Source: a virus | Strand: one strand, 5' to 3' | IMG/VR virus record: IMGVR_UViG_3300033064_002330 | Coordinates: 1-58,251 of that record | Length of the DNA: 58,251 bases | Shown: positions 1-58,251 of the stretch, one piece after another | How positions within the stretch are numbered: the stretch's first letter is position 1 | How the letters are laid out: each line of letters begins with the position of its first letter | Made by a program: the position numbers and the translations under genes | The notes under the pieces: generated by a model | Told to the model about the DNA's origin: nothing | Database searches by the model: none | The model's input: only the letters and a program-made list of their open reading frames with translations

Positions 1-141
1 CGGCGTCGGTCTCGGACCCGCCGACCTGGGGGAGAAGGCCCGCGTCGGGAACGACGACGATCCTAAGCGCGGCGTGACCGGCGCGGCCGGTTTGGTCGCC
101 CTCGTCGCCGACCTCGATTTCGCAGGCGATCACAAGAAACA
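1..141. repeat. Terminal redundancy, left copy
   Basis: These 141 bases are identical, base for base, to 58111-58251. A gene reads through the junction in frame (57920 into position 2), so the molecule is circular, or circularly permuted, in the sample. The length of 141 equals a common maximum k-mer of de Bruijn assemblers, so this is most likely an assembly overlap rather than a biological terminal repeat. Confidence 0.95.
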
Positions 142-1585
142 ATGTCCGCCGGACGAGGCGACCTGCCGCCGGATCCTCGACGAGGTCGGCCTGCCGCCGA
201 CGGCGTTGATCCACTCCGGGCACGGGTTGCAGGTTTGGTGGGCATTCAAGGAACCCCTGACGTTCGACACCGCGAAGGAACGCGCCGTCGCGTATCGCCT
301 TTCCGAGGCGTGGGGCCGAACGATCCAAGGCGTCGCGCATCGGGCGGGCGGTTACCGTCTCGACTCCGTCTACGACCTGGGCAGAATCTTCCGGGTGCCC
401 GGCACGACGAACAACAAGTCGACGCCGGTCCCCGTGACGGTCCTCGAGTTCGACGACTCGCGTCGATACGTCGAGGACGATTTCGAGGCGCACCTGCTGG
501 ACTATGTCCTGCCGCCGGACAAGGCGGCCGACTTTCCGATGATCGCGGCGGCGCGCGGCGATTGGCCGGAGGTCAACCTCCGGGCTGAATTCCCTCTGAT
601 CCCGCACGAGGCCCTTGTCGAGAACGATCAGGTGTATGCCGACCTCTGGAACCACAAACGCAAGGACCTCGACGCCGAGGACCTGTCGGCGTGGGATATG
701 GCCCTTGCCCATTACCTGACGCGGGTTTCGTGGCCGGTTGACGCCGTCGCCGCGATCCTTGTCCGGCACCGTCAGAAATGGGGGGACACGTCCGACAAAG
801 TCTACCGCGTCGACTACTATCAACGCACGATCGCGAAGGCGCGCCTGTCACAGCAAGTCGATATGACACGCGAAAACGCGGCGGAGGTCGTCGCCGACGA
901 GGATGCGTCGCACGAGGACCGGGTCGCGGCGATCGGCGCCCGCCTCGGGTTGGCCCTGACGCGGATCGAGAGGGTGTCCGGGACGCCCTCCGTCTATCGG
1001 TTCCACGTTGACGGCGACGTTTGCTCGATCCCGGCAACGTCGTTCGTGGATCAGCGCAAGGTGCAAGGGGCCCTGTTCGACCTCTGCGCTAAGATGCCCC
1101 GCGCGGTCAAGAAGGACGAACACCCGTCCTGGCTGACGATCACGAACGCGATCGGCGCCGTCGCGATCCCGGTCGACGCGGGCGCCGACGCGACGGACGA
1201 CGGCGAGTTGGTCAGCACCCTCCGCGATTTCCTGAACGGTTGGCCGCCGCGGGCGATCCCGTCCGGGACGCCGATCGAGAATCCGGAGCAGCCTTTCATT
1301 CGGGACGGTTGTATTTGGTGGAAGCTTGAAGCATTCATGGGCTACCTCCGCAACGCCCACGTCCGCGACACGCGCCGGTCGATCGCGCAACGCCTCGGGA
1401 TGCTCGGGGCGGAACGCTGGACGGCCAAAGTCTACGGGCGCGGCCGGGACGAGACGACGAACAGTTTCCACAAGATCGCCGTCGACTCGATCGACGGCCT
1501 CCGGGCGGCGGAGGTCAACGTCAACGAACTGATTGCTGGCGCGTTCGCGACGGACGACGGGTCGATCGACGACTCCGGCGTTTAG
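2..1585 (+). CDS. AEP-type DNA primase/polymerase, main part
   Basis: This is the larger part of a gene that begins at 57920; joined across the circle the product is 591 residues. It resembles archaeo-eukaryotic primases of the RepB/PrimPol type, which make and often extend primers at phage and plasmid origins. In full-length numbering the metal-binding DLD is at 101-103, SGHG at 136-139, and a third acidic residue D189 is followed by RVPGTTNNKS at 195-204, the usual order of AEP motifs. Residues about 270-345 look like a PriCT-type helical domain, and the C-terminal third is unassigned. No separate DNA polymerase gene is visible, so this enzyme may also polymerise (inference). It is followed by a box-rich gap and the SF1 helicase operon. 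Confidence 0.85.
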   Translation, partial: GVGLGPADLGEKARVGNDDDPKRGVTGAAGLVALVADLDFAGDHKKQCPPDEATCRRILDEVGLPPTALIHSGHGLQVWWAFKEPLTFDTAKERAVAYRLSEAWGRTIQGVAHRAGGYRLDSVYDLGRIFRVPGTTNNKSTPVPVTVLEFDDSRRYVEDDFEAHLLDYVLPPDKAADFPMIAAARGDWPEVNLRAEFPLIPHEALVENDQVYADLWNHKRKDLDAEDLSAWDMALAHYLTRVSWPVDAVAAILVRHRQKWGDTSDKVYRVDYYQRTIAKARLSQQVDMTRENAAEVVADEDASHEDRVAAIGARLGLALTRIERVSGTPSVYRFHVDGDVCSIPATSFVDQRKVQGALFDLCAKMPRAVKKDEHPSWLTITNAIGAVAIPVDAGADATDDGELVSTLRDFLNGWPPRAIPSGTPIENPEQPFIRDGCIWWKLEAFMGYLRNAHVRDTRRSIAQRLGMLGAERWTAKVYGRGRDETTNSFHKIAVDSIDGLRAAEVNVNELIAGAFATDDGSIDDSGV

Positions 1586-1742
1586 GCGTTTAGCACGTTA
1601 CGCACGCGTCGGCGCGCGCGCAACGTGCGCGTGAGGAGTTCCCTAAACCGTAAACTGCGGGCGCACACGTTGCTCTGTGAAACTGTAAACCGGGCCCTCG
1701 TCGAAATTCGACGGTTTAACGAACGCCCTTTCGGGCTAAACG
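1580..1742. promoter_or_regulatory. GTTTA-box array 1 between primase and helicase operon
   Basis: The 187 bp gap after the primase holds seven GTTTA/TAAAC boxes: forward at 1580, 1588 and 1714, reverse ending at 1648, 1655, 1690 and 1741. The fullest is GTTTAACG at 1714-1721. They sit among small inverted repeats: CGTCGAAATTCGACG at 1699-1713 (7 bp arms around one base) and GCCC-TTTC-GGGC at 1725-1736. The same boxes occur in array 2 (16727-16986). Such arrays usually bind a regulator or a replication initiator; which one is not shown by the sequence. I see no clear -35/-10 pair here. Confidence 0.6.
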
Positions 1743-1772
1743 CGGGGGCGTTCACAAAACTGGAGGCGCGCA

Positions 1773-2051
1773 ATGCAAGGACTGACAGTCGTGATCCGGC
1801 GTGATCCGCCGAATGGGTATTCATACAAAGTCGCCCTCGCAATACCCGGAATCGCCGTCCCCCTCGATCACCCGGAGGGGAACAAACCGACGGCCCGCGA
1901 GGCGTTGGCGAAGGCGTTCGGCGTTGCCGAGAGGGCGATCGACAAGGTCGAACTGTTCGAGCAGTTGACCGAGGACGACAGCACTCCGGCGCCTGTTATC
2001 ATCGGCGGCGACGGTCAGCCGTTGCACCTCGCGGACGAGGCGTCGGCATGA
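1773..2051 (+). CDS. Small protein of unknown function
   Basis: A 92-residue acidic protein with no family I recognise. The ATG has a good Shine-Dalgarno (TGGAGG, 1762-1767). The stop overlaps the start of the SF1 helicase gene as ATGA at 2048-2051, so the two are translationally coupled. It opens the operon just behind GTTTA-box array 1. The N-terminal half (residues 1-45) looks like a short beta-rich domain and the rest is helical and acidic. A helicase accessory role is only a guess from position. Confidence 0.6.
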   Translation: MQGLTVVIRRDPPNGYSYKVALAIPGIAVPLDHPEGNKPTAREALAKAFGVAERAIDKVELFEQLTEDDSTPAPVIIGGDGQPLHLADEASA

Positions 2052-3670
2052 GGCGACCCCTCGACCTGCAACCGATCAGCGAACACCTCCGGGTAGTAGG
2101 CCCGCCGGGCACCGGGAAGACGAGGTTCCTCACCCGCGAGGTCGAACACGACGCGCGCGAGTATGGATCCGACAACGTCGTCGCGGTCAGTTTCACGAAG
2201 GCCGCGGCGGCGGAGTTGGCCTCGCGTGTCGAGACGGTCGACCCGGACAATATCGGGACGCTTCACGCGTTGGCTTATCGCGCGATCGGGCGACCGGACG
2301 TCGCCGAGGACGGGCCGCACCTGAAGGAGTTTTCCGAGGCCTATCCTGATTACCCTATGGCGGCCGGGTTCGGCGATACGGAAGACCTCGAGTTCGGGAC
2401 GATGGGGACCACCGACGGCGACAAACTCCTCGCCCGTTACGGGCAGGCCCGGAACCTCGAGATCCCGCGCGCCGGTTGGTTCGACGACGTGAAGGGGTTC
2501 GCCCACGCGTGGGAGGAATACAAGGCCGACTCCGAGACGGTCGACTTTACCGATATGATCGAACTCGCCGTCCAGGAAACGACGGCGGCGCCCGGTTACC
2601 CGGCCTGCATCATCGCCGACGAAGCGCAGGACCTCTCGCGCCTACAGTTCCGACTCCTCTGCCATTGGGCGGGCGCGACCGAAAAGGTCGTGATGGCCTG
2701 CGACCCCGATCAGTCGATTTACGGTTTCGCGGGTGCCGACCCGGACGTCTTCCTCGAGGTCAAACCGAAGAAGCAGAAGGTCCTCGACCAATCGTATCGC
2801 GTCCCGCGCGCCGTCCACGCCTACGCCCACCAGTTGATCCGCCGGATCCAGCGCCGGGAGGATTTCGCGTACCTGCCGAAGCCGGAGGACGGCGCCGTTT
2901 ACAGCGGCCGATCGGCCGACACGTTCCGAAACCCCGGCCGACTGATTAAGCGATGGGAGGATCACCTCGCCGCGGGCGACTCCGTCCTCGTCCTGGCACC
3001 GTGCGCGTATATGCTCCGGCCGACCGTCGAACTGCTGAGACAAAACGCGATCCCGTTCGCCAACCCCCTCCGCAAGAAAAGGGGCGATTGGAACCCTCTC
3101 GGGAAGCGCGGCGAGGGGTCGACCGTGCAGGCCCTCCTCGATTGGTTGTCACCGCACCGTTTCGGCGATCGCCTCTGGTCGACGCACGAGGTCAAGCGTT
3201 GGGCGACCGTCGTCGCGAGGGTGTTCCGGCGCGGGTCGGGCGAGACGATTCGCAATATGCCCGAGGAGTGGACGGACGCGCGGGTATATGAATGCGTCCT
3301 CGCCTGCGTGAAGGACGACGCGGACTTTTCGGCGGGCGCGTTCGGTAGTATCGGCGGCGCCGTCGATTGGTTCCAACAGCACTTGAAGGCCGCGCGCAAG
3401 GCTCCGGCGGAGTTCGCCTGCAACGTCGCCCGCCGTCGCGGGATCGACGCCGTCGCCGAACCGCCGCGCCTGTGGGTGGGGACCTGCCATTCTTACAAGG
3501 GCGGCGAGGCCGATCACGTCTACGTTTGGCCGGACCTATCGCAACAAGGTTTCAACGAACTACAGCACGACCCCGACCCGACGATCCGCCTCTTTTACGT
3601 CGCCTGCACGAGGGCGAAGAAGACGCTGACCCTCGGCCATTCCGCCTCGGCGCAGGCATTCAACTGGTGA
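2048..3670 (+). CDS. SF1 (UvrD/PcrA/Rep-like) DNA helicase
   Basis: A 540-residue superfamily 1A helicase that should move 3' to 5' on single-stranded DNA using ATP. Walker A GPPGTGKT is at 18-25, motif Ia SFTKAAAAELASR follows near 48-60, Walker B DEAQD is at 191-195, and CDPDQSIYGFAGA (motif III) is at 218-230. SYRVP (motif IV) follows, then CHSYKGGEADHV (motif V) and FYVACTRAKK (motif VI) near the C-terminus. At 540 residues it is shorter than full UvrD (about 720), so some accessory subdomains are reduced. The start overlaps the preceding gene by four bases. Together with the primase and the RuvC-like gene it forms a replication/recombination cluster. Confidence 0.92.
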   Translation: MRRPLDLQPISEHLRVVGPPGTGKTRFLTREVEHDAREYGSDNVVAVSFTKAAAAELASRVETVDPDNIGTLHALAYRAIGRPDVAEDGPHLKEFSEAYPDYPMAAGFGDTEDLEFGTMGTTDGDKLLARYGQARNLEIPRAGWFDDVKGFAHAWEEYKADSETVDFTDMIELAVQETTAAPGYPACIIADEAQDLSRLQFRLLCHWAGATEKVVMACDPDQSIYGFAGADPDVFLEVKPKKQKVLDQSYRVPRAVHAYAHQLIRRIQRREDFAYLPKPEDGAVYSGRSADTFRNPGRLIKRWEDHLAAGDSVLVLAPCAYMLRPTVELLRQNAIPFANPLRKKRGDWNPLGKRGEGSTVQALLDWLSPHRFGDRLWSTHEVKRWATVVARVFRRGSGETIRNMPEEWTDARVYECVLACVKDDADFSAGAFGSIGGAVDWFQQHLKAARKAPAEFACNVARRRGIDAVAEPPRLWVGTCHSYKGGEADHVYVWPDLSQQGFNELQHDPDPTIRLFYVACTRAKKTLTLGHSASAQAFNW

Positions 3671-3674
3671 ACCT

Positions 3675-4460
3675 ATGGCACCGATAAAGAAGGGTGGCCG
3701 CCGCGGCATGACGGCCGACGACCTGAAGGGCCTTGGTTGGGATATGGCCGACCCGGACAACCCGAAGCCTCCGGCCGTGACCGGCGGCCCGGCGCCCGTG
3801 CCGTCCGACGTCGAACTGCCGGTCGCCCTATACGGGATCGACCCGTCGATCGTCTCAACCGGGATCGCCTACGTTCGTTGCGATCGCCCCTACGTGAAGA
3901 CGTGGCGCGTCCGGCCGGATCGCAACCCGTGGGGGAAGGAGTGGGCGCCGCGGCCGTCGGAGCAACACGATTGGAACACCCTCCGACTCCGGGCCCTGTT
4001 CCGGCGAGTGTCGCGGATCCTGCACGGGGCGGAGGCGCCGTCCGTTGCTCAACAGTCGAAGGTCGCCCGCCCGGCCGATCAGGTGATCGTCGAGGACACC
4101 TACTTCGGGCCAAACTCCGGGCGGGCGGCCGTCGCCCTTCTCGGCAAGGCTCACGCGGCCTGTCTGTCGGCGGCGGAGTGGGCGGCGGACCTGTTCCTCG
4201 ATGACCCTCGAGCCGTCCGGGCGGCCTGGACGTCGGAGGTCCTCGTGCCCGACGACGTGCGACGCCGGATCCGGGAGCAGTTTAAGGGCGACGCCCGGCG
4301 CAAAGAGGTTAAGGCCGCGCGTTGGGCCTACGCCGTCGAGTGGTACGTCGCCCACGTCGGCCCGTGCCCGTACCTGGACGGTCTCACCCAACCGGACGAA
4401 CGCGACGCGTTCGCGTTGGCCGTCGCCGTCGCGGCGGAAATAACCGCCGGGAACGCTTGA
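3675..4460 (+). CDS. RuvC-like Holliday-junction resolvase
   Basis: A 261-residue protein with the RuvC branch of the RNase H fold. The catalytic acids can be placed: D56 in YGIDPSIVSTGIAYV, E140 in VIVEDTYFG, and D241/D244 in DERDAFALAVA. Such enzymes resolve four-way junctions and branched DNA before packaging. The first 45 residues form a low-complexity extension; an alternative ATG at 3708 would shorten it by 11 residues, and neither start has a strong Shine-Dalgarno. It lies four bases after the helicase stop, in the same operon, and is followed by a palindromic promoter. Confidence 0.82.
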   Translation: MAPIKKGGRRGMTADDLKGLGWDMADPDNPKPPAVTGGPAPVPSDVELPVALYGIDPSIVSTGIAYVRCDRPYVKTWRVRPDRNPWGKEWAPRPSEQHDWNTLRLRALFRRVSRILHGAEAPSVAQQSKVARPADQVIVEDTYFGPNSGRAAVALLGKAHAACLSAAEWAADLFLDDPRAVRAAWTSEVLVPDDVRRRIREQFKGDARRKEVKAARWAYAVEWYVAHVGPCPYLDGLTQPDERDAFALAVAVAAEITAGNA

Positions 4461-4486: not shown

Positions 4487-4540
4487 CGGTGCCCGTGTTG
4501 CGGAACGCGGGTAACGTTCGACAGAAGGGAGGAACACCCC

Positions 4541-4927: not shown

Positions 4928-4952
4928 CCAATCCTACGGGAGGAACGACCCG

Positions 4953-8716: not shown

Positions 8717-8730
8717 CGGGAGGAACACCG

Positions 8731-9147: not shown

Positions 9148-9170
9148 AAGCCGCCTGACGCATTCGCACC

Positions 9171-9184
9171 CCGCCCCGGGGCGG
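9171..9184. other. GC palindrome in gap
   Basis: CCGCCCCGGGGCGG is a perfect 14 bp palindrome 24 bases after a stop codon. It has no loop and no T run, so it is a weak candidate terminator; it could also be a protein site. Confidence 0.35.
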
Positions 9185-9241
9185 TCGGTCGCCGACGACG
9201 CCGATCGGCCGCCTCGGGGCGCAGAAACGGGAGGAACACCC

Positions 9242-9907: not shown

Positions 9908-10263
9908 AAAAATGCCCGATCGGCCCGATACAGAATTACACTCCGGACCGGGCCGGGTGTTGCGCCCACGTCCGGCAGGTCGAGGTCCTCGCGGGGATCG
10001 CGGCCGTGACCTGCGGACGCGTCCACCTGCCCGAACTCAAAGGGGTCGTCGAATTCGCCTACGGGTGCGACGTGATCGGGGCCGACCCGGTCGCCCTCGC
10101 GGCGACCTACATACTCGCCGGGCAACCCGTCCCGGTCGAACTCGACGTGCAGGAACTCCTGTGCGTTTGGCAGGTTCACGCCTGCCTCGGACACCGCGAG
10201 TCGGTCCCGTACGTGCAGGCCCTTCAGGCGTTACGCCGAGGAGGTCCGTCTGATGCTGACTGA
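9904..10263 (+). CDS. Small cysteine-containing protein, unknown
   Basis: A 119-residue protein with six cysteines (for example RAGCCAHV at 17-24) and no family I recognise. The ATG overlaps the stop of the 3D-domain gene as ATGA, and its own end overlaps the next membrane protein gene by 11 bases. Coupling on both sides suggests a shared cell-envelope function, but nothing in the sequence proves it. No signal peptide or membrane helix. Confidence 0.55.
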   Translation: MKKCPIGPIQNYTPDRAGCCAHVRQVEVLAGIAAVTCGRVHLPELKGVVEFAYGCDVIGADPVALAATYILAGQPVPVELDVQELLCVWQVHACLGHRESVPYVQALQALRRGGPSDAD

Positions 10264-10579
10264 CTACTTCGACGGCGGCGACCTTCTGCTGGTGGCGACC
10301 GGTTTCTTCCTGTGGGGGGCGATCCGACGGCCGGGATCCGCCCGCCGGACGCTGGAACTGATCGCCGTCGGGGCGATCGTCCTCCTGTTGGTGGCGATCC
10401 CTCGCGCCCTGTCCCGCCTGTTCGCCGGACTTGCTGACGTGGTCGGCGCATTCTACGACACGGCACCCGTCCCGTTTGAACCGTTTATCGAACGGGTCCT
10501 GACCGAAACCGGGTTCCGGACCCCTAAGGAGGACGCACCCGATGGCCGAAACAGTACCGCCGACACCCGACCCCGTTGA
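10253..10579 (+). CDS. Small two-helix membrane protein
   Basis: A 108-residue protein with two predicted membrane helices at about 9-24 (GDLLLVATGFFLWGAI) and 34-53 (ELIAVGAIVLLLVAIPRAL), separated by a short basic loop, then an amphipathic tail. Topology resembles small holins or inner-membrane phage proteins, but it is away from the lysis cassette. The last 38 bases overlap the next gene in another frame. Confidence 0.55.
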   Translation: MLTDYFDGGDLLLVATGFFLWGAIRRPGSARRTLELIAVGAIVLLLVAIPRALSRLFAGLADVVGAFYDTAPVPFEPFIERVLTETGFRTPKEDAPDGRNSTADTRPR

Positions 10580-11129
10580 CGACCCGATCGTGATATACGT
10601 CGCCGAGCCCTACACGGCGCGACGTGACAACTGCGTCGGGTGCGCGGGTCCTATAGGCGAGGGGCCGTCCCTCTGCCCCCATGCCGCACGAGAGGCCGTT
10701 GAGTTTGTCGGCGATATGCGGATCGTGCCGGGCGCGACCTGCACAATGCCCGACGTTGACCGGCGCGATCGGAACGTCGCCGAGGCCGACCTCGCCGGGC
10801 GAATCATCGCCCGCCTTGGTCACGTCCCGTTCATCCCGCACACAATGACCCGCGATTGGGAACGCGACCCGGTCCTCCGATACCCGGACTTTATCAGGAT
10901 CGACGACGAATGGCTGAAGCGATCCGAGGCGATCCTATACGGGGCGACGTCGCCGGGCGCCGACAAGGAACTCGAACTCGCCCGGCGCAACGGCCTCGAC
11001 GTCTTCCGGTCGGTCCTCGAAATCCCGGCCGTCGTCGGGCGCGATCGCGACGTCGCGTTCCGGACGGCCGACCGCCCGCCGGGCGAGTCGGTGCAACGGA
11101 TCCCGTACGAAGGGACTTGGTGGAAATGA
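10542..11129 (+). CDS. Nucleoside 2-deoxyribosyltransferase-like (DUF4406-type) protein
   Basis: A 195-residue protein. It starts with the strand VIYVAEPYTA (17-26), then DRNVAEADLAGRIIARLGHVPFIPH (two stretches, 76-100), then PDFIRIDDEWLKRSEAILYG and SPGADKELELARRNGLDVF at 115-155. This is the pattern of nucleoside 2-deoxyribosyltransferase and DUF4406 proteins, where E143 would be near the catalytic position. About 45 residues (28-72) with four cysteines (CVGCAG, LCPH, TC) are inserted after the first strand and may bind zinc. Could act on nucleosides, or on a nucleotide second messenger (speculation). Shine-Dalgarno AAGGAGG fixes the ATG. Confidence 0.68.
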   Translation: MAETVPPTPDPVDDPIVIYVAEPYTARRDNCVGCAGPIGEGPSLCPHAAREAVEFVGDMRIVPGATCTMPDVDRRDRNVAEADLAGRIIARLGHVPFIPHTMTRDWERDPVLRYPDFIRIDDEWLKRSEAILYGATSPGADKELELARRNGLDVFRSVLEIPAVVGRDRDVAFRTADRPPGESVQRIPYEGTWWK

Positions 11130-11281
11130 CTCACGACCCGAAGAAGCGCAAGCGCCGGAAGGACAAGTCGCGCGCCCAACAGGCCCGCAAGTCACGGGCC
11201 GGGAATTCGACGAAGACGAAGGTCGGGCGGAGTCGCCGGGCGCAACACGCGAAACTGTTCGGCGAGTCCGGGTACGAGTGA
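11126..11281 (+). CDS. Very small, highly basic protein
   Basis: A 51-residue protein made largely of Lys and Arg (KKRKRRKDKSR, KSRAGNSTKTKVGRSRR) with a short acidic end. The ATG overlaps the previous stop (ATGA). Composition suggests binding to nucleic acid or to an acidic partner; it has no fold I can name. A 22 bp perfect palindrome follows its stop. Confidence 0.5.
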   Translation: MTHDPKKRKRRKDKSRAQQARKSRAGNSTKTKVGRSRRAQHAKLFGESGYE

Positions 11282-11290
11282 AGAAAGAGA

Positions 11291-11312
11291 CAGGCCGCCG
11301 ATCGGCGGCCTG
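11291..11312 (+). terminator. Perfect 22 bp hairpin after basic protein gene
   Basis: CAGGCCGCCGA and TCGGCGGCCTG are perfect reverse complements and adjacent, giving a stem with a GATC turn, nine bases after the stop at 11281. There is no T run, so termination would be intrinsic only weakly; it may instead protect an RNA end. Confidence 0.45.
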
Positions 11313-11326
11313 AAGGGCGGGTAACA

Positions 11327-11887
11327 ATGCACCCCGTAACTCGAGCCGGGATTGGGTTGTTCCTGATCGTCACGGGCGTCGTCTTCCTACTGGGGGCGAT
11401 CGCCTGCGGGTTCCGGCACCAACCGGCGGCCCTGCCGATCGCGGCCGTCGGGCTTGTCCTTGTGTGCGTCGGGATCCTGATACACGCGCCCGCGTACCGG
11501 GAACTCGACGCGCCTGCCGTGCCGGGTATATGCCCGGACTGTAACGGGTCCGGGTTCGGAGGCGGATCGACGTCGGCGACCTGCCATTGCTCGACGACGA
11601 TCACGACGGAGGCGAGGCAGTCGTGCCAGTTGACGACCGGCCGGGAAACCCGCCGCACGGGAGTTGATCGAATGCCCTGGACACCTCGGCCGACGTCGGC
11701 GGGCCTGTTGGGCGTCAACGCCCTCTGCCGGGAATGCGGTTGGCACTCGCAGGCCCGCAACGCCCAAGGTAACGCGGCCCGGCATTACGACGCGACGAAA
11801 CACACCGTCGACGTTGAGTCGACGATGGCCGTCACGTATGGCAACACCGACGCGTCACACCCGCACGAGAGAGAAGGCGGCGAATGA
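11327..11887 (+). CDS. Membrane protein with two zinc-binding motifs
   Basis: A 186-residue protein with two N-terminal membrane helices (about 8-28 and 34-53) and a cytoplasmic tail. The tail holds CPDCNGSGFGGG with a later CHC, similar to DnaJ-type zinc knuckles, and CRECGWHS (132-139) followed by two His (ARHYDATKH), the C2H2-like pattern seen in small phage zinc fingers. Could tether a nucleic-acid- or protein-binding finger to the membrane. No family name is supported. Its stop overlaps the next gene (ATGA). Confidence 0.55.
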   Translation: MHPVTRAGIGLFLIVTGVVFLLGAIACGFRHQPAALPIAAVGLVLVCVGILIHAPAYRELDAPAVPGICPDCNGSGFGGGSTSATCHCSTTITTEARQSCQLTTGRETRRTGVDRMPWTPRPTSAGLLGVNALCRECGWHSQARNAQGNAARHYDATKHTVDVESTMAVTYGNTDASHPHEREGGE

Positions 11888-12918
11888 TTGACCCCTATTG
11901 GGCGGACACCGACGCCGACCTGACGCTATACCACGGTGACAGCGTCGACGTCCTGCCGGGCCTGCCCGACGACTCCGTGTCGCTGATATGCACCGACCCC
12001 CCGTACGGCGTCGACCTGATGGGCAAGGCGTGGGATAAGGCCCTCCCCGATCCGACGGTTTGGGCCGAATGCCTGCGGGTCCTCAAACCGGGCGGATTCA
12101 TGTTCGCGTTTATGACCCCTCGTTTGGACTGCCTTTGGCGGTTTGGATCACAGGGCGAGGGCGTCGGGTTCGACGTTGGGCACTACCTCTTCGAGTGGGT
12201 ATACGCCGACGGGTTTCCGAAGGGCCGAGACCTGCCGGATGGGCGGAAGGGCGGACGCCAATCCATGAAACCTGCTCACGAGGCGATTGTCGTCGCGCAG
12301 AAACACCGGGCGGAGAAGACGATCGCCGCCAACGTCGAAAAACACGGGACCGGCGGGCTATACGTCGACGGCTGCATGATCCCATTCCCCGGTGACGGCA
12401 CTCCGGAATCGGACGGCGGCGGTTGGGGTTGGGAAGCGTCGGAAGGACCGGGATTTAACGGGGGCTGGAATGCCGATCACCAAACAACCGCCAACCCAAA
12501 AGGCCGACACCCGGCGAACCTCGCCGTGACGGATCAGGCCCTCGGCCGCCGGTCGAAATACTACGACGTCGACCGTTGGGCCCGCGAACACGTTGTCTTT
12601 ACTGAATGTGGGGCGCTTGCCTACTGCCCGAAGGCGGCGACGTCGGAGAAGGACGCCGGGACCGACGGCAACCCTCACCCGTCCGTCAAACCTCTCGCCC
12701 TGGTGTCCTGGTTGCTCACCCTCGGGACGCCGGACGGAGGCCTCGTCCTCGACCCGTTCGCCGGGACCGGGACAACCCTCGTCGCCGCGAAGGCCCTCGG
12801 GATTCGGGCCGTCGGAGTCGAACTGAACGACACGCCCGCCGAACCGTTCTGCACAATCGCCCGCCAACGGATCGAGGCGCAGGACCCGCCCGCGCCCACG
12901 CAGGGGACGCTGCTATGA
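11884..12918 (+). CDS. DNA methyltransferase, DPPY type
   Basis: A 344-residue DNA amino-methyltransferase. TDPPYG is at 37-42, followed by MGKAWD and LRVLKPGGFMFAF; the SAM-binding DPFAGTGTT is at 290-298 with GVELN after it. This order is the beta class. The sequence best fits N6-adenine or N4-cytosine methylation of duplex DNA. The central part contains a Gly/Trp-rich loop (about 170-195) that may carry target recognition. It is the second methyltransferase of this genome and is not a duplicate of the first: motifs and lengths differ. No restriction partner is seen. Coupled to genes on both sides by ATGA overlaps. Confidence 0.9.
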   Translation: MIDPYWADTDADLTLYHGDSVDVLPGLPDDSVSLICTDPPYGVDLMGKAWDKALPDPTVWAECLRVLKPGGFMFAFMTPRLDCLWRFGSQGEGVGFDVGHYLFEWVYADGFPKGRDLPDGRKGGRQSMKPAHEAIVVAQKHRAEKTIAANVEKHGTGGLYVDGCMIPFPGDGTPESDGGGWGWEASEGPGFNGGWNADHQTTANPKGRHPANLAVTDQALGRRSKYYDVDRWAREHVVFTECGALAYCPKAATSEKDAGTDGNPHPSVKPLALVSWLLTLGTPDGGLVLDPFAGTGTTLVAAKALGIRAVGVELNDTPAEPFCTIARQRIEAQDPPAPTQGTLL

Positions 12919-13247
12919 CCCCTCCCCGCACCGCCCGACAAGGCAAGTTCGTTGCCCGCGATCACCTCGTCCGGACCGTTCAGGCGCCGGACCTGCGCCT
13001 GCACCTCGTCCGACGGACGATCAACGAGAAGCGACACGCCTTCACGTATGAAACCCACTGCGGGATCGCCCGCCTAATCACCCACCGGATCGCGGTCGAT
13101 ACTTGGCGACATAAGGCCCGCGACTCGTTCGCGAAGGCCGACGGGCCCTGCCCTGAATGCGCCGCCGCCCTGGCGAACCTGCTCGCCAAAGGGCCCCATT
13201 GCGAGACGACGCCGAAGAAGCCGAAACGGACGTCAGCCGACGACTGA
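12915..13247 (+). CDS. Small zinc-ribbon-like protein
   Basis: A 110-residue basic protein. THCGIARLITHR and CPECAAAL supply two His/Cys pairs that could bind one zinc ion (about residues 47-80). The C-terminus is lysine rich (TTPKKPKRTS). The ATG overlaps the methyltransferase stop. No named family; this composition is common among small phage proteins that bind host enzymes or nucleic acids. Confidence 0.55.
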   Translation: MTPPRTARQGKFVARDHLVRTVQAPDLRLHLVRRTINEKRHAFTYETHCGIARLITHRIAVDTWRHKARDSFAKADGPCPECAAALANLLAKGPHCETTPKKPKRTSADD

Positions 13248-13262
13248 AAGGAGTCGCTCAAC

Positions 13263-13682
13263 GTGCCCCAACAAACCGAGAAGCCGCCAACGTATAGCGA
13301 CCGAGAATGCTCGCCGGAGTTTGCCGACGCAATACGCCAGGGCGGGTCGATCGTCCAACGGTGCGGCCCGTGCGGGCGTACCTACTTTGTTGCCGAAGGG
13401 GATTTCGACCAAGGGGAACTCGAGGGCCTCCGGCTGGACGCGTCGCAGGACCCCGATCGGTACGTCGCAAACGAATTCGTCGATTTCATTTCGTGGGGGT
13501 CATTCTTCGGCAAGGAGATCGTCGAGGGCTGCCCTTGCGGCTACGCCGCTCATGTCGAGTCGTCTCTGTGGACGCACCGTTCTATGATCGTAAAGTACCT
13601 TCGCGACCGTTCGGTCCGCGCCCTCGAGTCGACCCAACAGGACGCCGACGAAATCGCCTCGATCAGCGAACTGAAGACCTGA
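13263..13682 (+). CDS. Small protein with two Cys motifs
   Basis: A 139-residue acidic protein with CGPCGRTYF (34-42) and CPCGYAAH (about 90-97), a likely split zinc ribbon, then a helical C-terminus. GTG start at 13263 behind GAAAGGAG. It is the last gene before the packaging block. Unknown function. Confidence 0.55.
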   Translation: MPQQTEKPPTYSDRECSPEFADAIRQGGSIVQRCGPCGRTYFVAEGDFDQGELEGLRLDASQDPDRYVANEFVDFISWGSFFGKEIVEGCPCGYAAHVESSLWTHRSMIVKYLRDRSVRALESTQQDADEIASISELKT

Positions 13683-13721
13683 CCCGTTGCGCGAAATCGT
13701 TGACCGAGGTAACCTGTCCCC

Positions 13722-14594
13722 ATGTTTCCAGACCCGCAGGATAAGCCGGACACCCCGGACGGGGGGCGCGTCAAAGGCCCGCCCGCCCCTCCCGCGGGCG
13801 CTAAGGCCGATCCCCCGGCCGACGGCCCGGATTCGGGCGCCGAACTCGAGCAGGGCGACGGTGTCGACCTTCTCGCCGTGGGCGAAGACGGTCGCCCGGC
13901 ACTCGAGGGAGGGACGCAGTTCGTCGACCTCACCCTCGAGAAGGTCGACGTCGTCGACGCTGACGGCACCCTCGTCCCCGCCGACCATGATCCGTCGGAC
14001 CTGCAGGTCGCGGTCCTGACGATCGCCGAGGGGACCGACGTCGACGACCTGCCCGAGGCCGTCCTCGTCGATTTCCGGGTCATTGGACGCAGCCGACAGG
14101 CCCGACGCCGTGCCGTGCGGTCCTGCGTGATCCAATCGCCGAGGATCGGGCATCGGGTCCTTGGGCGCCTGTTCGGCGTCAACAAGGACACGATCACAAA
14201 CGACCTCCGGGCGATCAGTTCGGCGACCCTCGAGAGGGTGACCAATCACGACGCCGCGGAGGAAATCGGAGAGGCGTTCAACTTCTATACATTCATGCGA
14301 GACCTCGCCCTCGCCGATATGGCGCAGGTCAAACCAGGAAGCAATATGCGCGCCGCCCATTTCCGCAACGCGATCACCTCACAGGAGAGGATCGACGAGG
14401 TCGCCTTCCGGTTGGGCCTCTGGCGAGAGGCCCCGAAGGAACTTATCATCGGCGGACAGGCGGCCGATCCCCGTAAGGCGATCGCCGCGACCCTCTCGAA
14501 CGAGGAACTCGCCGACGCCTTGACCGGCCGGTCGAGGAGGGAGGCGGCCAATGGCGACAACGGAGAAGACGTCCCCGATCCGACCGGCGACTGA
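13722..14594 (+). CDS. Putative terminase small subunit
   Basis: A 290-residue protein. The first 110 residues are acidic, proline-rich and probably disordered. Residues about 130-170 hold a helix-turn-helix (GHRVLGRLFGVNKDTITNDL), fitting DNA recognition at a packaging site. The rest is helical, as in oligomer-forming small terminases. Identification rests on this HTH and on position: it overlaps the large terminase gene by 44 bases. No Shine-Dalgarno is evident; a weak TTGCGC-N17-TAACCT pair at 13687-13715 lies so close that the mRNA would be nearly leaderless. Confidence 0.65.
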   Translation: MFPDPQDKPDTPDGGRVKGPPAPPAGAKADPPADGPDSGAELEQGDGVDLLAVGEDGRPALEGGTQFVDLTLEKVDVVDADGTLVPADHDPSDLQVAVLTIAEGTDVDDLPEAVLVDFRVIGRSRQARRRAVRSCVIQSPRIGHRVLGRLFGVNKDTITNDLRAISSATLERVTNHDAAEEIGEAFNFYTFMRDLALADMAQVKPGSNMRAAHFRNAITSQERIDEVAFRLGLWREAPKELIIGGQAADPRKAIAATLSNEELADALTGRSRREAANGDNGEDVPDPTGD

Positions 14595-16032
14595 ACCCGA
14601 CGATTGGGCGGCCCTCGAGGAACTGAATCGAGAGGAGTCGATCGACCGGGTATTCGAGGAAGCGACTCGCAGCACGGTCGCGTTCGCCGCCCTCTTCGCG
14701 CCGACGATCGCCCATAAACTGAAGGGCCTGATCCCCTTCCGCCCCCACGGTTACCAATGCGACCTGACCGACGAACTCGACCGCGGCGGGAAGACAATCC
14801 TCCTCAAGGCGAGGCAGATTGGTATTTCGACGACGATCATGATTCAGAAACTCCGACGCGCCATATTCGACGGCGCGACGGTCCTCGTCGTTTCACGCAA
14901 CGAAGATGCGTCGAAGGAACTGGTGAAAATGGCGCAGGACGCGTGGGATAACCTACGCTTCCCGACGGGCGTCGTCCAGACGACCAAGAATACCCTCGAG
15001 GTTGGCTTCTCCAGCGGCGGCCGAATCAAGGCGATCCCCTCGAGCAAGAACGCCGGTCGAGTAATGTCCGCGAGCGACCTCGTGATCGACGAGGCGGCGT
15101 TCCTGCCGTGGCAAGAGGAAATGTGGCGATCGGTCCGGCCGACGGTCACCCACGGATTCTCGATCGTCGTCGTGTCGACGCCGGATATGGAAGGCGACGT
15201 CTTCTCGCGCCTGTGGGATGAAGCGGGCGATCCAGAGTCGGATTGGGTGCGGTTCGAGTGGCCGTGGCGGACCTGCCCGGCCTACGACGACGAGTGGTAT
15301 GCGGCGAACCGGCCTGACTACACGGCGTCGGATTGGGCGCAGGAGTATGAATGCCAATTCGGCAACGCCTCGGACGCCGTGTTCGGGCGGGTGTGGATCG
15401 ACGCGGCGATCGCCCTCGCCGAGGCCGATCCGTACCTGCCTCCGGACGCGCCTGCATTCGACGTCTACGCCCAGGGGATCGACCTGTCGGGCGAGGGGCG
15501 CGACTCCTCGGTGATTACGACACTCGATATCCGAGAGGCGCCCTTCTGGCTTGCCGACGTGCGGGCGTGGGAGGTCCTGCCCGCGCCGTTGCTCGAGGCG
15601 GAGGTCGTGAAGGCGATTGGCGAATTCGAGGTCGAACCGTGGATCGACCGGACCGGCCTGGGTTGGGGGATCACGCAACACCTGAACGTCCCGCACAAGG
15701 CCGTCGCGATCACCGCCGGGTCGCAGGTTGGCGGGACGGCGACGGAGCCAAACATCCCGCGGTCAGTCCTGATAAACAACCTCGTGATGGGCCTCGAGAA
15801 TGGTCAACTCCGGATCCCCGCCAACGAACAGGAAACGATCCGAGGCCTCCGAACGCATCGGTGGACGAAGAAACGCGGGAAGGCCGTCGACTTTGTGGAC
15901 GCCCTGGCCCTGGCGTATTGGGCGGCGACCGAGGCCCGGCGGACGCGCGAGTGGTGGGAGGATCGGTCGCAATGGGATCGGTACAAGGGGATCACGACCG
16001 GACGGGCCGACGTCGAGGCCGCCGGACAATAG
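14551..16032 (+). CDS. terL: Terminase large subunit
   Basis: A 493-residue packaging ATPase-nuclease. The Walker A variant KARQIGIST is at 86-94, Walker B LVIDEAAF at 177-184, and motif C SIVVVSTPD at 204-212. The C-terminal RNase H-like nuclease shows D311 (GIDLSGEGRDSS), D366 (WIDRTG) and D450 (DFVDALALAYW), the three expected metal-binding acids. It docks on the portal and pumps and cuts DNA. Length is normal for the family. Start ATG 14551 lies inside the small subunit gene, behind GGAGGCGGCC. Confidence 0.95.
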   Translation: MATTEKTSPIRPATEPDDWAALEELNREESIDRVFEEATRSTVAFAALFAPTIAHKLKGLIPFRPHGYQCDLTDELDRGGKTILLKARQIGISTTIMIQKLRRAIFDGATVLVVSRNEDASKELVKMAQDAWDNLRFPTGVVQTTKNTLEVGFSSGGRIKAIPSSKNAGRVMSASDLVIDEAAFLPWQEEMWRSVRPTVTHGFSIVVVSTPDMEGDVFSRLWDEAGDPESDWVRFEWPWRTCPAYDDEWYAANRPDYTASDWAQEYECQFGNASDAVFGRVWIDAAIALAEADPYLPPDAPAFDVYAQGIDLSGEGRDSSVITTLDIREAPFWLADVRAWEVLPAPLLEAEVVKAIGEFEVEPWIDRTGLGWGITQHLNVPHKAVAITAGSQVGGTATEPNIPRSVLINNLVMGLENGQLRIPANEQETIRGLRTHRWTKKRGKAVDFVDALALAYWAATEARRTREWWEDRSQWDRYKGITTGRADVEAAGQ

Positions 16033-16033
16033 G

Positions 16034-16732
16034 ATGCGCACCGTGCCGACACAGAAACAACTTGACGACCTCGGGCCGTGGTTCCAGCGCATCGAGTTCC
16101 CCGACGGGAAGACGGTCGGCAAGTGGGATACGCCGGGCCTGACGCGGATCCTGCTGAACGGAGCCGAAATCATTGCACGAGGGGCGCGGGTCCTCGAGGT
16201 GGGGGCTATGTCCGGCGGAATGACCAAGGTCCTCGAGCAGGATTTCGACGCGGAGGTTACCGCGATCGAGACCGACGTCCGGGCGTGTCGGCAGTTCGAG
16301 TTGGTGGCCGAGGCCTGCGACCTGACCGCGGAACTGATCGAGGGGGACATTCTCGACGTCGACGGCCTCGAAGAGGAATGGCCCTTGCACTATCGCGGCC
16401 CCTGGCCCGTCGCGATCCTCGCGGGCGTCTACTACCACTCACTACACCCGATCGCCGTCCTCGATGCGACGTGGAAGCATTGCACCGAACTGATGATCGT
16501 CGAGGGTTGGGTGATCCCGGTCGACGCGCCCAACGGTCGGGACCTCGTCGCGGAGTGGGTTGACAACTCGCCCGGCGCATTCTTCCGGTCGACCGGCGCG
16601 AACTGGTGGCGCCCGTCGGTGGCCTGCCTGTATGCGTGGGCGCACACCCTCCCCGACGTCCGGCACGTCGACCTGTTCTACCCGTCCTATGACGAGGCCG
16701 ACCGGGCGCACCTGCACGTTTGGCGGGTTTAG
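16034..16732 (+). CDS. Class I SAM methyltransferase, CmoB-like
   Basis: A 232-residue methyltransferase. LGPWFQRIEFPDGKTVGKWD (13-32) resembles the leader seen in CmoB/DUF1698-type enzymes, and RVLEVGAMSGGMT (52-64) is the SAM-binding glycine loop with E79 after strand 2. The acceptor is unknown; related phage enzymes are often linked to sugar or tRNA modification, which I cannot separate here. It begins one base after the terminase stop, so it is read with the packaging genes. The 280 bp box-rich region follows, and one box overlaps its last codons. Confidence 0.72.
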   Translation: MRTVPTQKQLDDLGPWFQRIEFPDGKTVGKWDTPGLTRILLNGAEIIARGARVLEVGAMSGGMTKVLEQDFDAEVTAIETDVRACRQFELVAEACDLTAELIEGDILDVDGLEEEWPLHYRGPWPVAILAGVYYHSLHPIAVLDATWKHCTELMIVEGWVIPVDAPNGRDLVAEWVDNSPGAFFRSTGANWWRPSVACLYAWAHTLPDVRHVDLFYPSYDEADRAHLHVWRV

Positions 16733-16986
16733 CAAGTTTAGCAAAACGAAGGGCCGTTTAGGCCCGGAATGCGAATCGACAATGAAAACACCCGTTTTGG
16801 GTTTTGCGAAACGGCCCCTGTTTAACGACTGTATAACGCAAACAGGGGGGTCGTTAAACCGCCGATTTCGCCGATACGGCGTCCGGCGTCTTCACACAGG
16901 GGTATATCGCCTACGCGGTTTAACGTTTAACGAAACTGCCTCGCCCGCTACCCGCGCGCGCGCCGACGCACGGGGGTACGTTAAAC
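16727..16986. promoter_or_regulatory. GTTTAACG-box array 2
   Basis: Eight boxes in 260 bp: GTTTAG at 16727, 16736 and 16756; GTTTAACG at 16820, 16918 and 16925 (the last two in tandem, sharing one base); and reverse CGTTAAAC at 16852-16859 and 16979-16986. The region between the methyltransferase and the next gene is the longest gene-free stretch (280 bp) and is visibly richer in A and T than its surroundings. The same boxes form array 1 at 1580-1742. A replication origin, a partition-like site, or a late-gene control region are the main possibilities. Confidence 0.65.
16751..16859. repeat. Nested inverted repeats within array 2
   Basis: Several perfect inverted repeats interlock: GGGCC-GTTTA-GGCCC (16751-16765, the loop is a box); GGGCCGTTT (16751-16759) with AAACGGCCC (16809-16817); CCCCTGTTT (16815-16823) with AAACAGGGG (16840-16848); and GTTTAACGAC (16820-16829) with GTCGTTAAAC (16850-16859). 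They cannot all form at once, so the segment can switch between alternative hairpins or cruciforms. Confidence 0.7.
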
Positions 16987-17012
16987 CGATACAGGCGCAG
17001 GAGGCCGCACCC

Positions 17013-17351
17013 GTGAACGTCAAACGCTTCTTCCGGATGCCCGCCGACGTCGCCCGCGCCGAGGAACTCGCCCGTACGGGAGGCCCGTTCCCTATGCTCG
17101 AGCAAGGCCCCCTCGATCCCGAGGTCTTGGCGCCGCCGATCCTACGACCGTTGGTCCGGCGGACGGTCGAGACCGTGCCCGTCCGACTGACGCCCGATCG
17201 CCTCTTCGGCGTGTCGTGTCGTCGCGTGAAAGAGGCGTCGCCTGACGGTCCGGAATGCCCGGCCTGCACCTCTGACCCGATCGACCGACGGACGGCCTAC
17301 CTCGTCTATTCCTGCGCCTCCGGCGCGCGCGATCACACCAAACGCCCTTGA
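17013..17351 (+). CDS. Small protein upstream of portal, unknown
   Basis: A 112-residue protein starting at GTG 17013 behind CAGGAGG. It has a CPAC motif (about residues 89-92) and two other cysteines near it that could bind zinc, and a proline-rich centre. It lies between the box array and a long hairpin before the portal gene. Upstream in-frame codons run into the boxes and look non-coding, so I chose the GTG. No family recognised. Confidence 0.55.
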   Translation: MNVKRFFRMPADVARAEELARTGGPFPMLEQGPLDPEVLAPPILRPLVRRTVETVPVRLTPDRLFGVSCRRVKEASPDGPECPACTSDPIDRRTAYLVYSCASGARDHTKRP

Positions 17352-17359: not shown

Positions 17360-17400
17360 GCCGGTCGGCGTTACAGTTCCTCCTGTTGACGCCGACCGGC
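17360..17400 (+). terminator. Long 12 bp-stem hairpin before portal gene
   Basis: GCCGGTCGGCGT (17360-17371) pairs perfectly with ACGCCGACCGGC (17389-17400) around a 17-base loop. It starts nine bases after a stop codon and ends 19 bases before the portal start. No T run follows. It may limit read-through into the head genes or stabilise their mRNA. Confidence 0.5.
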
Positions 17401-17419: not shown

Positions 17420-19171
17420 TTGGGAATCAAGGCCCGCGCCCGCGCGGCATATCAGGCCCTTCTCGGTCGCCCGTCCGCGCACGATCAAGGCGTCTTCGAC
17501 GCGTCCCCCCGTCGCGCTAACACGAACGACTCGACGACCCGGCCGATCGGGTCCGCCGTCCTGACGGACGCGACCGGAGAGGGGCGCCTGACGGCCCTCT
17601 CCCTCCTCGACTATTTCGCCGAGGTATTCACGCCTGCCACCGTCTGCATTACGAAGAGGCAGGAACAGGTCGCGGCCCTCGAGTATACGTTCCAGCCGCG
17701 TCAAGGCGAGGATCCCGAGGACAAGGCCGTCGAGGATCAGGTCCGGGCGGCCGTCGAATACTTCGGTTACGGCGGCGGGTTGGGCGGGCCGCGGTCCCTC
17801 TGGCGTACGTTCACCGACAAACTGATATGGTCGGCCCTGACGATCGACGCCGTCCCGTTGTGGGTTGACCGATCGACGGGCCCGATCGCCGGTCACCGAC
17901 TCTTGAACGGCCTGACGGTCGCCCCCGTCCTCGATCCGAAGGGTTGGGTGCCCAAACCTCCGGCCGTCGCTTACAAGCAATACTCGAACGGAAAACTCGT
18001 CGGTCAGTTCACGGCCGACGACCTGCACTATTTCGTCCTGCGGCCGCGCCCGAAAACGCCTTACGGGTTCCCGCCGACCGAGGCGATTGTTTCGTCTATC
18101 CTCACTTACCTGTACAGCGAGAATTGGAACCTCGATTTCTTTATCAACGGCGACAAGGATTCGGGCTATTGGGAAATGGCCGAGGGCCTGACGCCTCCGC
18201 AATGGCGACAGTTCGAGGAATTCATTAACGAACTCGACCCGTCGACGCCGGACGCGCGCGGGCACGGGAAGCCGGTCCCCCACGGGACGGTACATCACCC
18301 CTGGAAGGTCCGGTCGGATATGGAGTGGGATAAGCTCCAACTCCGGATAATTACGCTGACGGCGGCGATGTACGGGCTGAACGCGTCGACGATCGGGTTC
18401 GCCGCCGAGACTTACAAGTCGGCCGAGGAGGGTCAGGTCGAAGCGTCCCGCCGATGGGGCCTCGTGCCCCTGATGATATACGTTGGCGAGATTGCGAACG
18501 CCGTCCTCCGCGACCTGGGCCTCGACCTGATCGAGCATACATGGGCGCCCGAGGACGACGACCCCCTCGAACAGGCGACCGTGATACAAACCGCCGGGAC
18601 GTCCGTCCTCACTCGCAACGATGCGCGCCGCCGGTTGGGCGAGGACACGGTCGAGGACTCGCCCCTCGCGAATTGCCTTTACGAGGTCCTGCCGACCGGG
18701 ATCCTGGTGTTCCACGATCCGGACCGTCCGAACGAAAAGTACATGATCGAGGCGCCCAAGGATGAGGCCGCGTCGGACGATCCGGAGGCGGCCCTCGTCG
18801 AGGCGCCCGAGGACGACGAACTCGAGCCGGGCGACGTCCCGGCGGAACTCGAGCCGGGCGGCGACGATGATGCGATCGACGACGAGGCCGATCAGGCCCT
18901 TCGCCAATGGCGCCGCAAGGCGAGGGCCCGGATCCCGGCCGGGCGCCCCTGCCCGTTCGCGACGACGGCGATCCCGCCGCGGGCGCAGGTATACGTCGCC
19001 CAACGCCTCGAGCATTGCGAGACGCGCGCCGACGTGGACGCCGTGTTCGTCGCCGTGCGCGATCCCGCTAACCTGGGCCTGTCGCTGACGGACACGGTCT
19101 CGGAACTGCGCGGGATGGTCGAGTCGGCGATCGGCGAAATGGATCACCGGAGCAACGGAGGCGCGAAGTGA
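17420..19171 (+). CDS. Portal protein
   Basis: A 583-residue protein of the phage portal family: the twelve-fold ring at the capsid vertex through which DNA enters and leaves. Characteristic stretches are ALTIDAVPLWVDR, FTADDLHYFVLRPR, YGFPPTEAIVSSI, and AMYGLNASTIGF with a following acidic helix, in the usual order. The last ~130 residues are acidic (EDDELEPGDVPAEL) with a Cys-containing tail. TTG start at 17420 after GAGGTG; no better start fits the frame. It overlaps the next gene by four bases (GTGA). Confidence 0.88.
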   Translation: MGIKARARAAYQALLGRPSAHDQGVFDASPRRANTNDSTTRPIGSAVLTDATGEGRLTALSLLDYFAEVFTPATVCITKRQEQVAALEYTFQPRQGEDPEDKAVEDQVRAAVEYFGYGGGLGGPRSLWRTFTDKLIWSALTIDAVPLWVDRSTGPIAGHRLLNGLTVAPVLDPKGWVPKPPAVAYKQYSNGKLVGQFTADDLHYFVLRPRPKTPYGFPPTEAIVSSILTYLYSENWNLDFFINGDKDSGYWEMAEGLTPPQWRQFEEFINELDPSTPDARGHGKPVPHGTVHHPWKVRSDMEWDKLQLRIITLTAAMYGLNASTIGFAAETYKSAEEGQVEASRRWGLVPLMIYVGEIANAVLRDLGLDLIEHTWAPEDDDPLEQATVIQTAGTSVLTRNDARRRLGEDTVEDSPLANCLYEVLPTGILVFHDPDRPNEKYMIEAPKDEAASDDPEAALVEAPEDDELEPGDVPAELEPGGDDDAIDDEADQALRQWRRKARARIPAGRPCPFATTAIPPRAQVYVAQRLEHCETRADVDAVFVAVRDPANLGLSLTDTVSELRGMVESAIGEMDHRSNGGAK

Positions 19172-57919: not shown

Positions 57920-58251
57920 TTGCAACCGATCAACACGCACGAATTCATTCACGCCCTCTATGCCGAAGGCGGCGACGCAACGGAAGGCCTCTTCCTGCAC
58001 GTCTGGACGCTGCCCAACGCCCTGACCAAGTGGTTCCCTGCCAACCCCCCCGGAGTCGTGTCGGCGGCCGCCTACGTCGACGCATTGGACGACGACCGGG
58101 ATGTTTACGTCGGCGTCGGTCTCGGACCCGCCGACCTGGGGGAGAAGGCCCGCGTCGGGAACGACGACGATCCTAAGCGCGGCGTGACCGGCGCGGCCGG
58201 TTTGGTCGCCCTCGTCGCCGACCTCGATTTCGCAGGCGATCACAAGAAACA
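57920..58251 (+). CDS. AEP-type DNA primase/polymerase, N-terminal part
   Basis: Starts at TTG 57920 behind GGGAGGGGCG and runs off the window end; because the last 141 bases equal the first 141, it continues at position 2 (see that entry). The first ~90 residues (MQPINTHEFIHALYAEGGDA and onward) form the N-terminal lobe before the catalytic DLD. This start gives 591 residues, a usual size. No ATG exists in the correct place. Confidence 0.85.
   Translation, partial: MQPINTHEFIHALYAEGGDATEGLFLHVWTLPNALTKWFPANPPGVVSAAAYVDALDDDRDVYVGVGLGPADLGEKARVGNDDDPKRGVTGAAGLVALVADLDFAGDHKK
58111..58251. repeat. Terminal redundancy, right copy
   Basis: Exact repeat of positions 1-141; marks circularity of the assembled molecule. 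Confidence 0.95.

What the first reader, a model, noticed from the sequence alone, without database searches (positions are those of the whole stretch)
16727..17012. GTTTAACG box array with interlocked inverted repeats in the longest gene-free region
Eight GTTTA(G/ACG) boxes in both orientations and at least four mutually exclusive inverted repeats sit in 280 bp between the packaging and head genes, in DNA visibly richer in A and T than its surroundings. This looks like an origin, centromere-like site or complex control region that I cannot match to a described phage element.
Basis: partly seen in the sequence, partly recalled or inferred. Interest (0 to 1): 0.8.

Follow-up and report, generated by a model that had tools for sequence, protein, structure and literature searches.

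The report
Paired replication-origin arrays beside phage primase
The odd cluster of GTTTAACG boxes is one of two mirror-image copies of the same DNA element in this phage, the other lying directly behind its DNA primase gene exactly where related phages carry similar box clusters, so it is most likely part of a two-site DNA replication origin, something unmapped in most phages of this kind.

Summary
The 280-bp gap at 16733-17012 carries eight GTTTA boxes (five exact GTTTAACG) and six strong inverted repeats; 0 of 500 shuffles match it. A and the finding (B) are homologous in inverted orientation (65.7% over 178 columns, E 4.6e-12), with box steps 56-7-63-23 versus 57-7-63-24 bp. The similarity survives masking of the boxes. 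Fourteen other intergenic stretches (1,710 bp) contain no box.

Array A starts in the stop codon of an archaeo-eukaryotic-type primase-polymerase gene. In twelve Mycobacterium, Gordonia and Tsukamurella phages with a related primase, the DNA just 3' of that gene also holds phage-specific boxes in both orientations. P4 has the same layout: crr just 3' of the alpha primase, plus a distant ori with the same boxes. SaPI and pRN1 origins also lie just 3' of the initiator gene.

Best reading: A and B are paired binding arrays for the replication initiator, probably the primase itself, forming an ori/crr-like or oriL/oriR-like origin. Binding and initiation are inferred, not tested. Novelty: a new variant of a known kind.

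The parts
16727..17003 (.). Array B (the finding): eight GTTTA boxes in both orientations, at 16727+, 16736+, 16756+, 16820+, 16855-, 16918+, 16925+, 16982-, plus a one-mismatch box GTATAACG at 16831+
16801..17003 (-). Part of array B that is homologous to array A in inverted orientation
16733..16800 (.). Extra AT-richer flank of array B without a counterpart in array A; candidate unwinding region
   Evidence: local stability minimum at 16737-16836; absent from the A/B alignment
1580..1741 (.). Array A: seven GTTTA boxes at 1580+, 1588+, 1644-, 1651-, 1686-, 1714+, 1737-
1574..1760 (+). Element A, full extent of the homology to B
1606..1621 (+). GCGTCGGCGCGCGCGC, 16-mer shared exactly with B at the matching place
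16954..16969 (-). Same 16-mer in B, reverse complement
1..1585 (+). 3' part of the primase-polymerase gene (591 aa in all, from 57920 across the circular junction); its stop codon lies in the first box of A; proposed initiator
57920..58110 (+). 5' part of the primase-polymerase gene
2048..3670 (+). UvrD/Dda-type helicase, next module after array A
3675..4460 (+). RuvC-like resolvase (weak match)

Best explanation
Array A (1580-1741) and array B (16727-17003) are two copies, in inverted orientation and about 15.2 kb apart, of one initiator-binding element; together they make up the phage's replication-initiation cis sites. Proposed working: the phage initiator, most likely the primase-polymerase encoded immediately upstream of A and acting through its C-terminal domain, binds the GTTTAACG-type boxes cooperatively. 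The bound sites are held in register by the conserved spacing (63 bp, about six helical turns, between the tandem pair and the next box). The complex melts adjacent AT-richer DNA and primes synthesis. The second array acts as a partner site brought in by looping (like P4 crr with ori), as a second origin, or as a fork barrier that converts theta into concatemer-forming replication (like SPP1 oriR). Shown here: two homologous noncoding arrays, their spacing, the position of A directly 3' of prim-pol, and the same placement of other box arrays in related prim-pol phages. Inferred: binding by the primase, melting, initiation and looping.
For: A and B are homologous in inverted orientation (65.7% over 178 columns; score 106 against a maximum of 87 in random genome pairs) and remain so with boxes, and with boxes plus the shared 16-mer, masked. 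Box steps are 56-7-63-23 in A and 57-7-63-24 in B read backwards. Of 41 GTTTA in the genome 15 lie in A and B; none in 1,710 bp of other gaps. A starts in the stop codon of the prim-pol gene. In twelve actinophages with a homologous prim-pol the stretch 3' of the gene carries phage-specific boxes in both orientations. P4 is annotated with crr directly 3' of the alpha gene and a distant ori with the same boxes, partly inverted to each other. SaPI origins lie directly downstream of rep and are read by the Rep C-terminus (PMC7581432); pRN1 needs 166 bp just downstream of its prim-pol gene (PMC4234260); SPP1 has two similar origins 12-13 kb apart, one in an intergenic gap of the late region (PMC6316719, PMC3485210). 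A low-confidence model of the prim-pol C-terminus has SCCmec Cch and SaPI Rep as its first four fold matches (E 0.03-0.34).
Against: No binding or initiation data. GC skew shows no switch at A or B. Array A is not strongly AT-rich (weakest 100 bp only in the lowest 1.1%). Four relatives searched over nearly the whole genome have a single array, so the pair is not general. The window's prim-pol lacks the helicase domains fused to the primase in the relatives checked and matches them only over about residues 38-231. The C-terminal model is poor (pLDDT 47). No close relative carrying the pair was found.
Confidence: 0.68

Rival explanations
1. The arrays are operators for a phage transcription regulator: A controls the operon 1773-16732 (helicase to terminase) and B the structural operon from 17013, coordinating middle and late expression.
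For: Both arrays lie at the head of a long rightward gene block. Sigma-70-like promoters are seen at other gaps (49307, 55843) but not in A or B, so these blocks may need a phage factor. Small HTH proteins are encoded at 4541, 53317 and 55907.
Against: The element is inverted relative to transcription in B compared with A, although both downstream operons run the same way. Box arrays recur 3' of prim-pol in phages with different gene content downstream. No promoter elements were found in the arrays.
Confidence: 0.18
2. Centromere-like or packaging site: the arrays bind a partition protein, or the terminase small subunit (pac), for segregation or packaging.
For: The box differs by one base from the parS half-site GTTTCACG (recalled from general knowledge); B lies next to the terminase gene.
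Against: No ParA or ParB family match among the proteins scanned; no array box is GTTTCACG and no inverted GTTTCACG pair occurs in the window. Two inverted copies do not suit a single pac site, and A lies far from the terminase genes.
Confidence: 0.06
3. RNA-level control: hairpins formed by the inverted boxes in transcripts act as terminators or attenuators.
For: The inverted boxes can pair, and mutually exclusive hairpins can be drawn.
Against: RNA folding of B is no better than shuffled sequence (z -0.75). Because A and B are inverted, their transcripts are complementary types rather than the same RNA. No Rfam match.
Confidence: 0.04

Closest known systems
Phage P4 ori and crr (bound by the alpha primase-helicase)
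   Same: Same short boxes, in both orientations and in tandem pairs, at two separate sites; one site (crr) directly 3' of the primase gene, the other kilobases away, with partial similarity in inverted orientation.
   Different: Box is TGTTCACC, not GTTTAACG; P4 alpha is a Toprim primase fused to a D5-type helicase, the window's protein has neither domain; 15.2 kb separation instead of about 4.8 kb; crr is itself a 120-bp direct repeat.
Box arrays 3' of prim-pol in Mycobacterium, Gordonia and Tsukamurella phages (CrimD, BetterKatz, TPA4 and others)
   Same: Homologous prim-pol N-terminal domain; array immediately 3' of the gene; boxes in both orientations; tandem pairs.
   Different: Different box sequences; a single array in the four genomes searched; often a more AT-rich core; no origin function demonstrated there either.
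SaPI Rep / SCCmec Cch2 origins
   Same: Iterons directly downstream of the initiator gene, read by its C-terminal domain (PMC7581432).
   Different: Initiator is a helicase or primase-helicase; a single origin site is described.
SPP1 oriL and oriR
   Same: Two similar origins 12-13 kb apart, one at the initiator gene, one in an intergenic gap of the late region (PMC6316719, PMC3485210).
   Different: SPP1 uses the gp38 replisome organizer, a DnaB-type helicase and a loader, none found here; direct repeats and stronger AT-rich unwinding elements.
pRN1 ORF904 origin
   Same: Essential cis element just 3' of a prim-pol gene (PMC4234260).
   Different: pRN1 has a 100-nt stem-loop and no iterons.

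Membership tests
Prim-pol-linked (SaPI/P4-type) iteron origin | Repeat array immediately 3' of the initiator/primase gene | tested here: met
   Array A begins in the prim-pol stop codon
Prim-pol-linked (SaPI/P4-type) iteron origin | Short boxes repeated in both orientations, with tandem pairs | tested here: met
   Seven boxes in A, eight in B; tandem pairs at 7, 8 and 9 bp
Prim-pol-linked (SaPI/P4-type) iteron origin | AT-rich core or flank for unwinding | tested here: inconclusive
   B among the weakest 0.1% of 100-bp stretches, A only in the weakest 1.1%
Prim-pol-linked (SaPI/P4-type) iteron origin | C-terminal DNA-binding domain of the initiator | tested here: inconclusive
   Low-confidence model; first fold matches are SCCmec Cch and SaPI Rep, E 0.03-0.34
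Prim-pol-linked (SaPI/P4-type) iteron origin | Initiator binds the boxes and replication starts there | not testable with these tools
   Needs biochemistry or replication mapping
Phage P4 ori/crr | Two separate cis sites carrying the same boxes | tested here: met
   A and B; P4 annotation
Phage P4 ori/crr | Alpha-type Toprim primase with D5 helicase | tested here: not met
   No such Pfam domain in the 591-aa protein; present in P4 alpha
SPP1 oriL/oriR | Two similar origins about 12-13 kb apart, one in a late-region gap | tested here: met
   15.2 kb apart; B in the longest gap, beside terminase; SPP1
SPP1 oriL/oriR | gp38 organizer with DnaB-type helicase and loader | tested here: not met
   Not among Pfam/PHROG matches of the proteins scanned
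parS centromere | Palindromic GTTTCACGTGAAAC and a ParB gene | tested here: not met
   No inverted GTTTCACG pair in the window; no ParB match
Cluster K start-associated sequences | 13-bp asymmetric repeat just before many start codons, mostly in one orientation | tested here: not met
   Boxes lie in only two gaps, in both orientations (definition from PMC3203893)

The most novel reading that the evidence does not exclude
Phages with archaeo-eukaryotic-type primase-polymerases share a class of replication origin, a fast-evolving box array fixed to the 3' end of the prim-pol gene. This phage has a long-range, inverted two-site version in which a second copy beside the terminase gene is bridged by the primase and couples replication to the switch into concatemer formation and packaging.
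Probability: 0.3. Interest if true: 0.78.

Novelty: new variant of a known kind. Interest (0 to 1): 0.62.

Why it matters
To my knowledge replication origins are unmapped in most actinobacteriophages. A simple rule, to look immediately 3' of the prim-pol gene for a phage-specific box array, gives a testable origin in cultivable phages such as CrimD, BetterKatz and TPA4. It also offers a natural set of initiator/box pairs for studying how an initiator and its sites change specificity together. The inverted second copy beside the terminase gene would be a new instance of two-site initiation, outside the P4 satellite and SPP1.

Tried and rejected
Relatives by nucleotide: none in the phage collection. 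TerL, portal and prim-pol scans of IMG/VR, and a TerL scan of genome contigs, gave only distant TerL relatives, without boxes near TerL. Exact tandem box in IMG/VR: two hits; the one inspected (L011) is a lone pair in 45% G+C DNA with no array, the other (L012) was searched only with the A/B profile, without a hit. Gapped architecture pattern: 22 hits, all in DNA of 32-45% G+C with no array, about the number expected by chance. GC and third-position skew: no switch at either array. RNA structure and Rfam: nothing. Sigma-70 promoters inside the arrays: none. Coding potential of the arrays: negative in all frames, although frame 16560-17351 is open. The HTH candidate 4541-4927 gave an unusable model. 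Literature search for the GTTTAAC string: only unrelated papers.

Full report
What was checked. The window is a 58,251-bp viral record with a 141-bp repeat at its ends, so it is read here as a circularly permuted, apparently complete genome of 58,110 unique bases. The region 16733-17012 lies between the terminase large subunit gene (14551-16032) and the portal gene (17420-19171), with a 232-aa and a 112-aa ORF next to it. It contains five exact GTTTAACG boxes against about one expected in the whole window, and eight GTTTA cores in the array at 16727, 16736, 16756, 16820, 16855(-), 16918, 16925 and 16982(-). In 500 dinucleotide shuffles of the region none reached the observed box count, repeated 8-mer or number of inverted repeats. 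Most of the inverted repeats are simply one box facing another. The region is noncoding by codon usage in all six frames, although one frame stays open.

A second array. Scanning all gaps showed that the only other GTTTAACG in the genome (1714) sits in the gap 1586-1772, together with six more GTTTA cores in and just before it (1580, 1588, 1644-, 1651-, 1686-, 1737-). Fifteen of the 41 GTTTA in the genome fall in these two places, and none in 1,710 bp of fourteen other intergenic stretches. The boxes are therefore not a by-product of AT-richer noncoding DNA.

The two arrays are one element in two copies. Array A aligns with the reverse complement of array B at 65.7% identity over 178 columns (blastn E 4.6e-12). 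The local score is 106, against a mean of 47.7 and a maximum of 87 for about 1000 random pairs from the genome; the forward comparison scores only 39.5. The similarity stays above all of 1000 shuffles when all boxes, and then also the shared 16-mer GCGTCGGCGCGCGCGC, are masked. A profile of the two finds no third copy. Start-to-start steps of the cores are 56-7-63-23 in A and 57-7-63-24 in B read backwards (the last B box is the one-mismatch GTATAACG at 16831), so box spacing is kept to within a base. Since both flanking operons run rightward but the element is inverted, its function should not depend on the direction of transcription (inference).

Where array A lies. It begins inside the stop codon of a gene that runs from 57920 across the circular junction to 1585 and encodes a 591-aa protein matching phage DNA polymerase/primase families. 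Downstream come a UvrD/Dda-type helicase and a RuvC-like resolvase.

The same place in other phages. The N-terminal domain of this protein is homologous to the primase-polymerase of Mycobacterium, Gordonia and Tsukamurella phages. I examined the DNA 3' of that gene in twelve of them. In nine it is an unannotated gap of 238-670 bp among otherwise tightly packed genes; in three (Unicorn, Nergal, ZoeJ) a hypothetical ORF has been annotated over it. In all twelve the stretch contains short boxes in both orientations: CCAGCAAACC in BetterKatz and DelRio, CCCTCGGAAC in TPA4, GGTGACAG in MalagasyRose, GGCACAGAT in CrimD, AGCACAGAT in Nergal and Marshawn, AGAACAGAT in Unicorn, AGGGACGG in Marcoliusprime, GGGTGCC in GMA4, GTCGGTGCA in Boilgate and GGACAGAT in ZoeJ. 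Among those mapped, boxes often come as tandem pairs about 8-13 bp apart on both sides of an AT-richer core. In eight of ten tested, the repeat content exceeds that of every other window of the locus; Boilgate (3% of windows as high) and MalagasyRose (10%) are weaker. The BetterKatz boxes were found only in this stretch (50.0 of 50.6 kb searched), and those of CrimD have two stray copies elsewhere. These phages are partly related to each other, so the twelve are not independent, but the box sequences differ among most of them while place and layout stay.

Link to known origins. The P4 record is annotated with crr, a cis region required for replication, made of 8-bp type 1 boxes in both orientations; it lies about 46 bp beyond the 3' end of the alpha primase gene, and the separate ori carries the same boxes. 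Part of crr matches ori in inverted orientation. SaPI origins lie directly downstream of rep, consist of iterons and are read by the C-terminal domain of Rep; the SCCmec Cch2 helicase binds repeats downstream of its own gene through its C-terminal domain (PMC7581432). The prim-pol plasmid pRN1 needs 166 bp just downstream of orf904, though as a stem-loop (PMC4234260). SPP1 has two similar origins 12-13 kb apart, one in the initiator gene and one in an intergenic gap of the late region, the latter thought to stall the fork and trigger concatemer formation (PMC6316719, PMC3485210). A low-confidence model of the last 128 residues of the window's prim-pol has SCCmec Cch and SaPI Rep as its first four fold matches, at E 0.03-0.34; this is suggestive only.

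Interpretation. The simplest account is that A and B are binding arrays for the replication initiator, probably the prim-pol, and form a two-site origin. Which array is melted is open: A has the canonical place, B the more AT-rich flank. The distant copy could be a looping partner, a second origin or a fork barrier. The main rival is a transcription regulator acting at the heads of two operons; it is weakened by the inverted orientation, the lack of promoter-like sites in the arrays and the recurrence of such arrays 3' of prim-pol elsewhere. Binding and initiation have not been tested, skew gives no support, and no close relative carrying the pair was found.

Novelty. The cluster K genome paper describes start-associated repeats but does not contain the phrase 'origin of'; searches of the open-access library for origins in such phages found no description of these arrays, though subscription papers were not searchable. 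The arrays are a known kind of thing (initiator boxes downstream of a primase gene) in a setting for which I found no description; the inverted second copy 15 kb away is the new variation.

Noticed in passing
window 1-141 and 58111-58251: Exact 141-bp repeat of the two ends: the record is a circularly closed assembly, and the prim-pol gene runs across the junction.
   Followed up: yes
window 49274-49335: Strong sigma-70-like promoter TTGACG-17-TAAAAT (49307), with ACAGGTG(C/T)AAAA occurring twice (49274 region and over the -10), possibly an operator pair.
   Followed up: no
window 55843-55871: Second sigma-70-like promoter, TTGACA-17-TACATT, just before the 77-aa HTH gene 55907-56140.
   Followed up: no
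window 17360-17400: Twelve-base inverted repeat GCCGGTCGGCGT/ACGCCGACCGGC between the 112-aa ORF and the portal gene, overlapping a promoter-like site.
   Followed up: no
window 49609-49770, 49709-49737, 51226-51254: Repeated gene-start segments: CGACGGAAGACGCATACACTCAGGAGGAAGAC at 49609 and 49739; GGATCACGGTCGGCACAACGAAGGGCGAA at 49709 and 51226.
   Followed up: no
L125:6777-7127, L126:6714-7058, L133:6738-7202: Hypothetical ORFs annotated directly 3' of prim-pol in Mycobacterium phages Unicorn, Nergal and ZoeJ lie over the box arrays and may be spurious.
   Followed up: partly
L115, L122, L125, L126, L131: The boxes of several Mycobacterium prim-pol phages (GGTGACAG, GGCACAGAT, AGAACAGAT, AGCACAGAT) resemble the P4 decamer GGTGAACAG; MalagasyRose and CrimD primases share the D5_N helicase domain with P4 alpha although P4 has a Toprim primase.
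   Followed up: partly
window 7136-8716 and 11884-12918: Two DNA methylase genes of the same family; the first matches in two stretches with a large insert between them.
   Followed up: no
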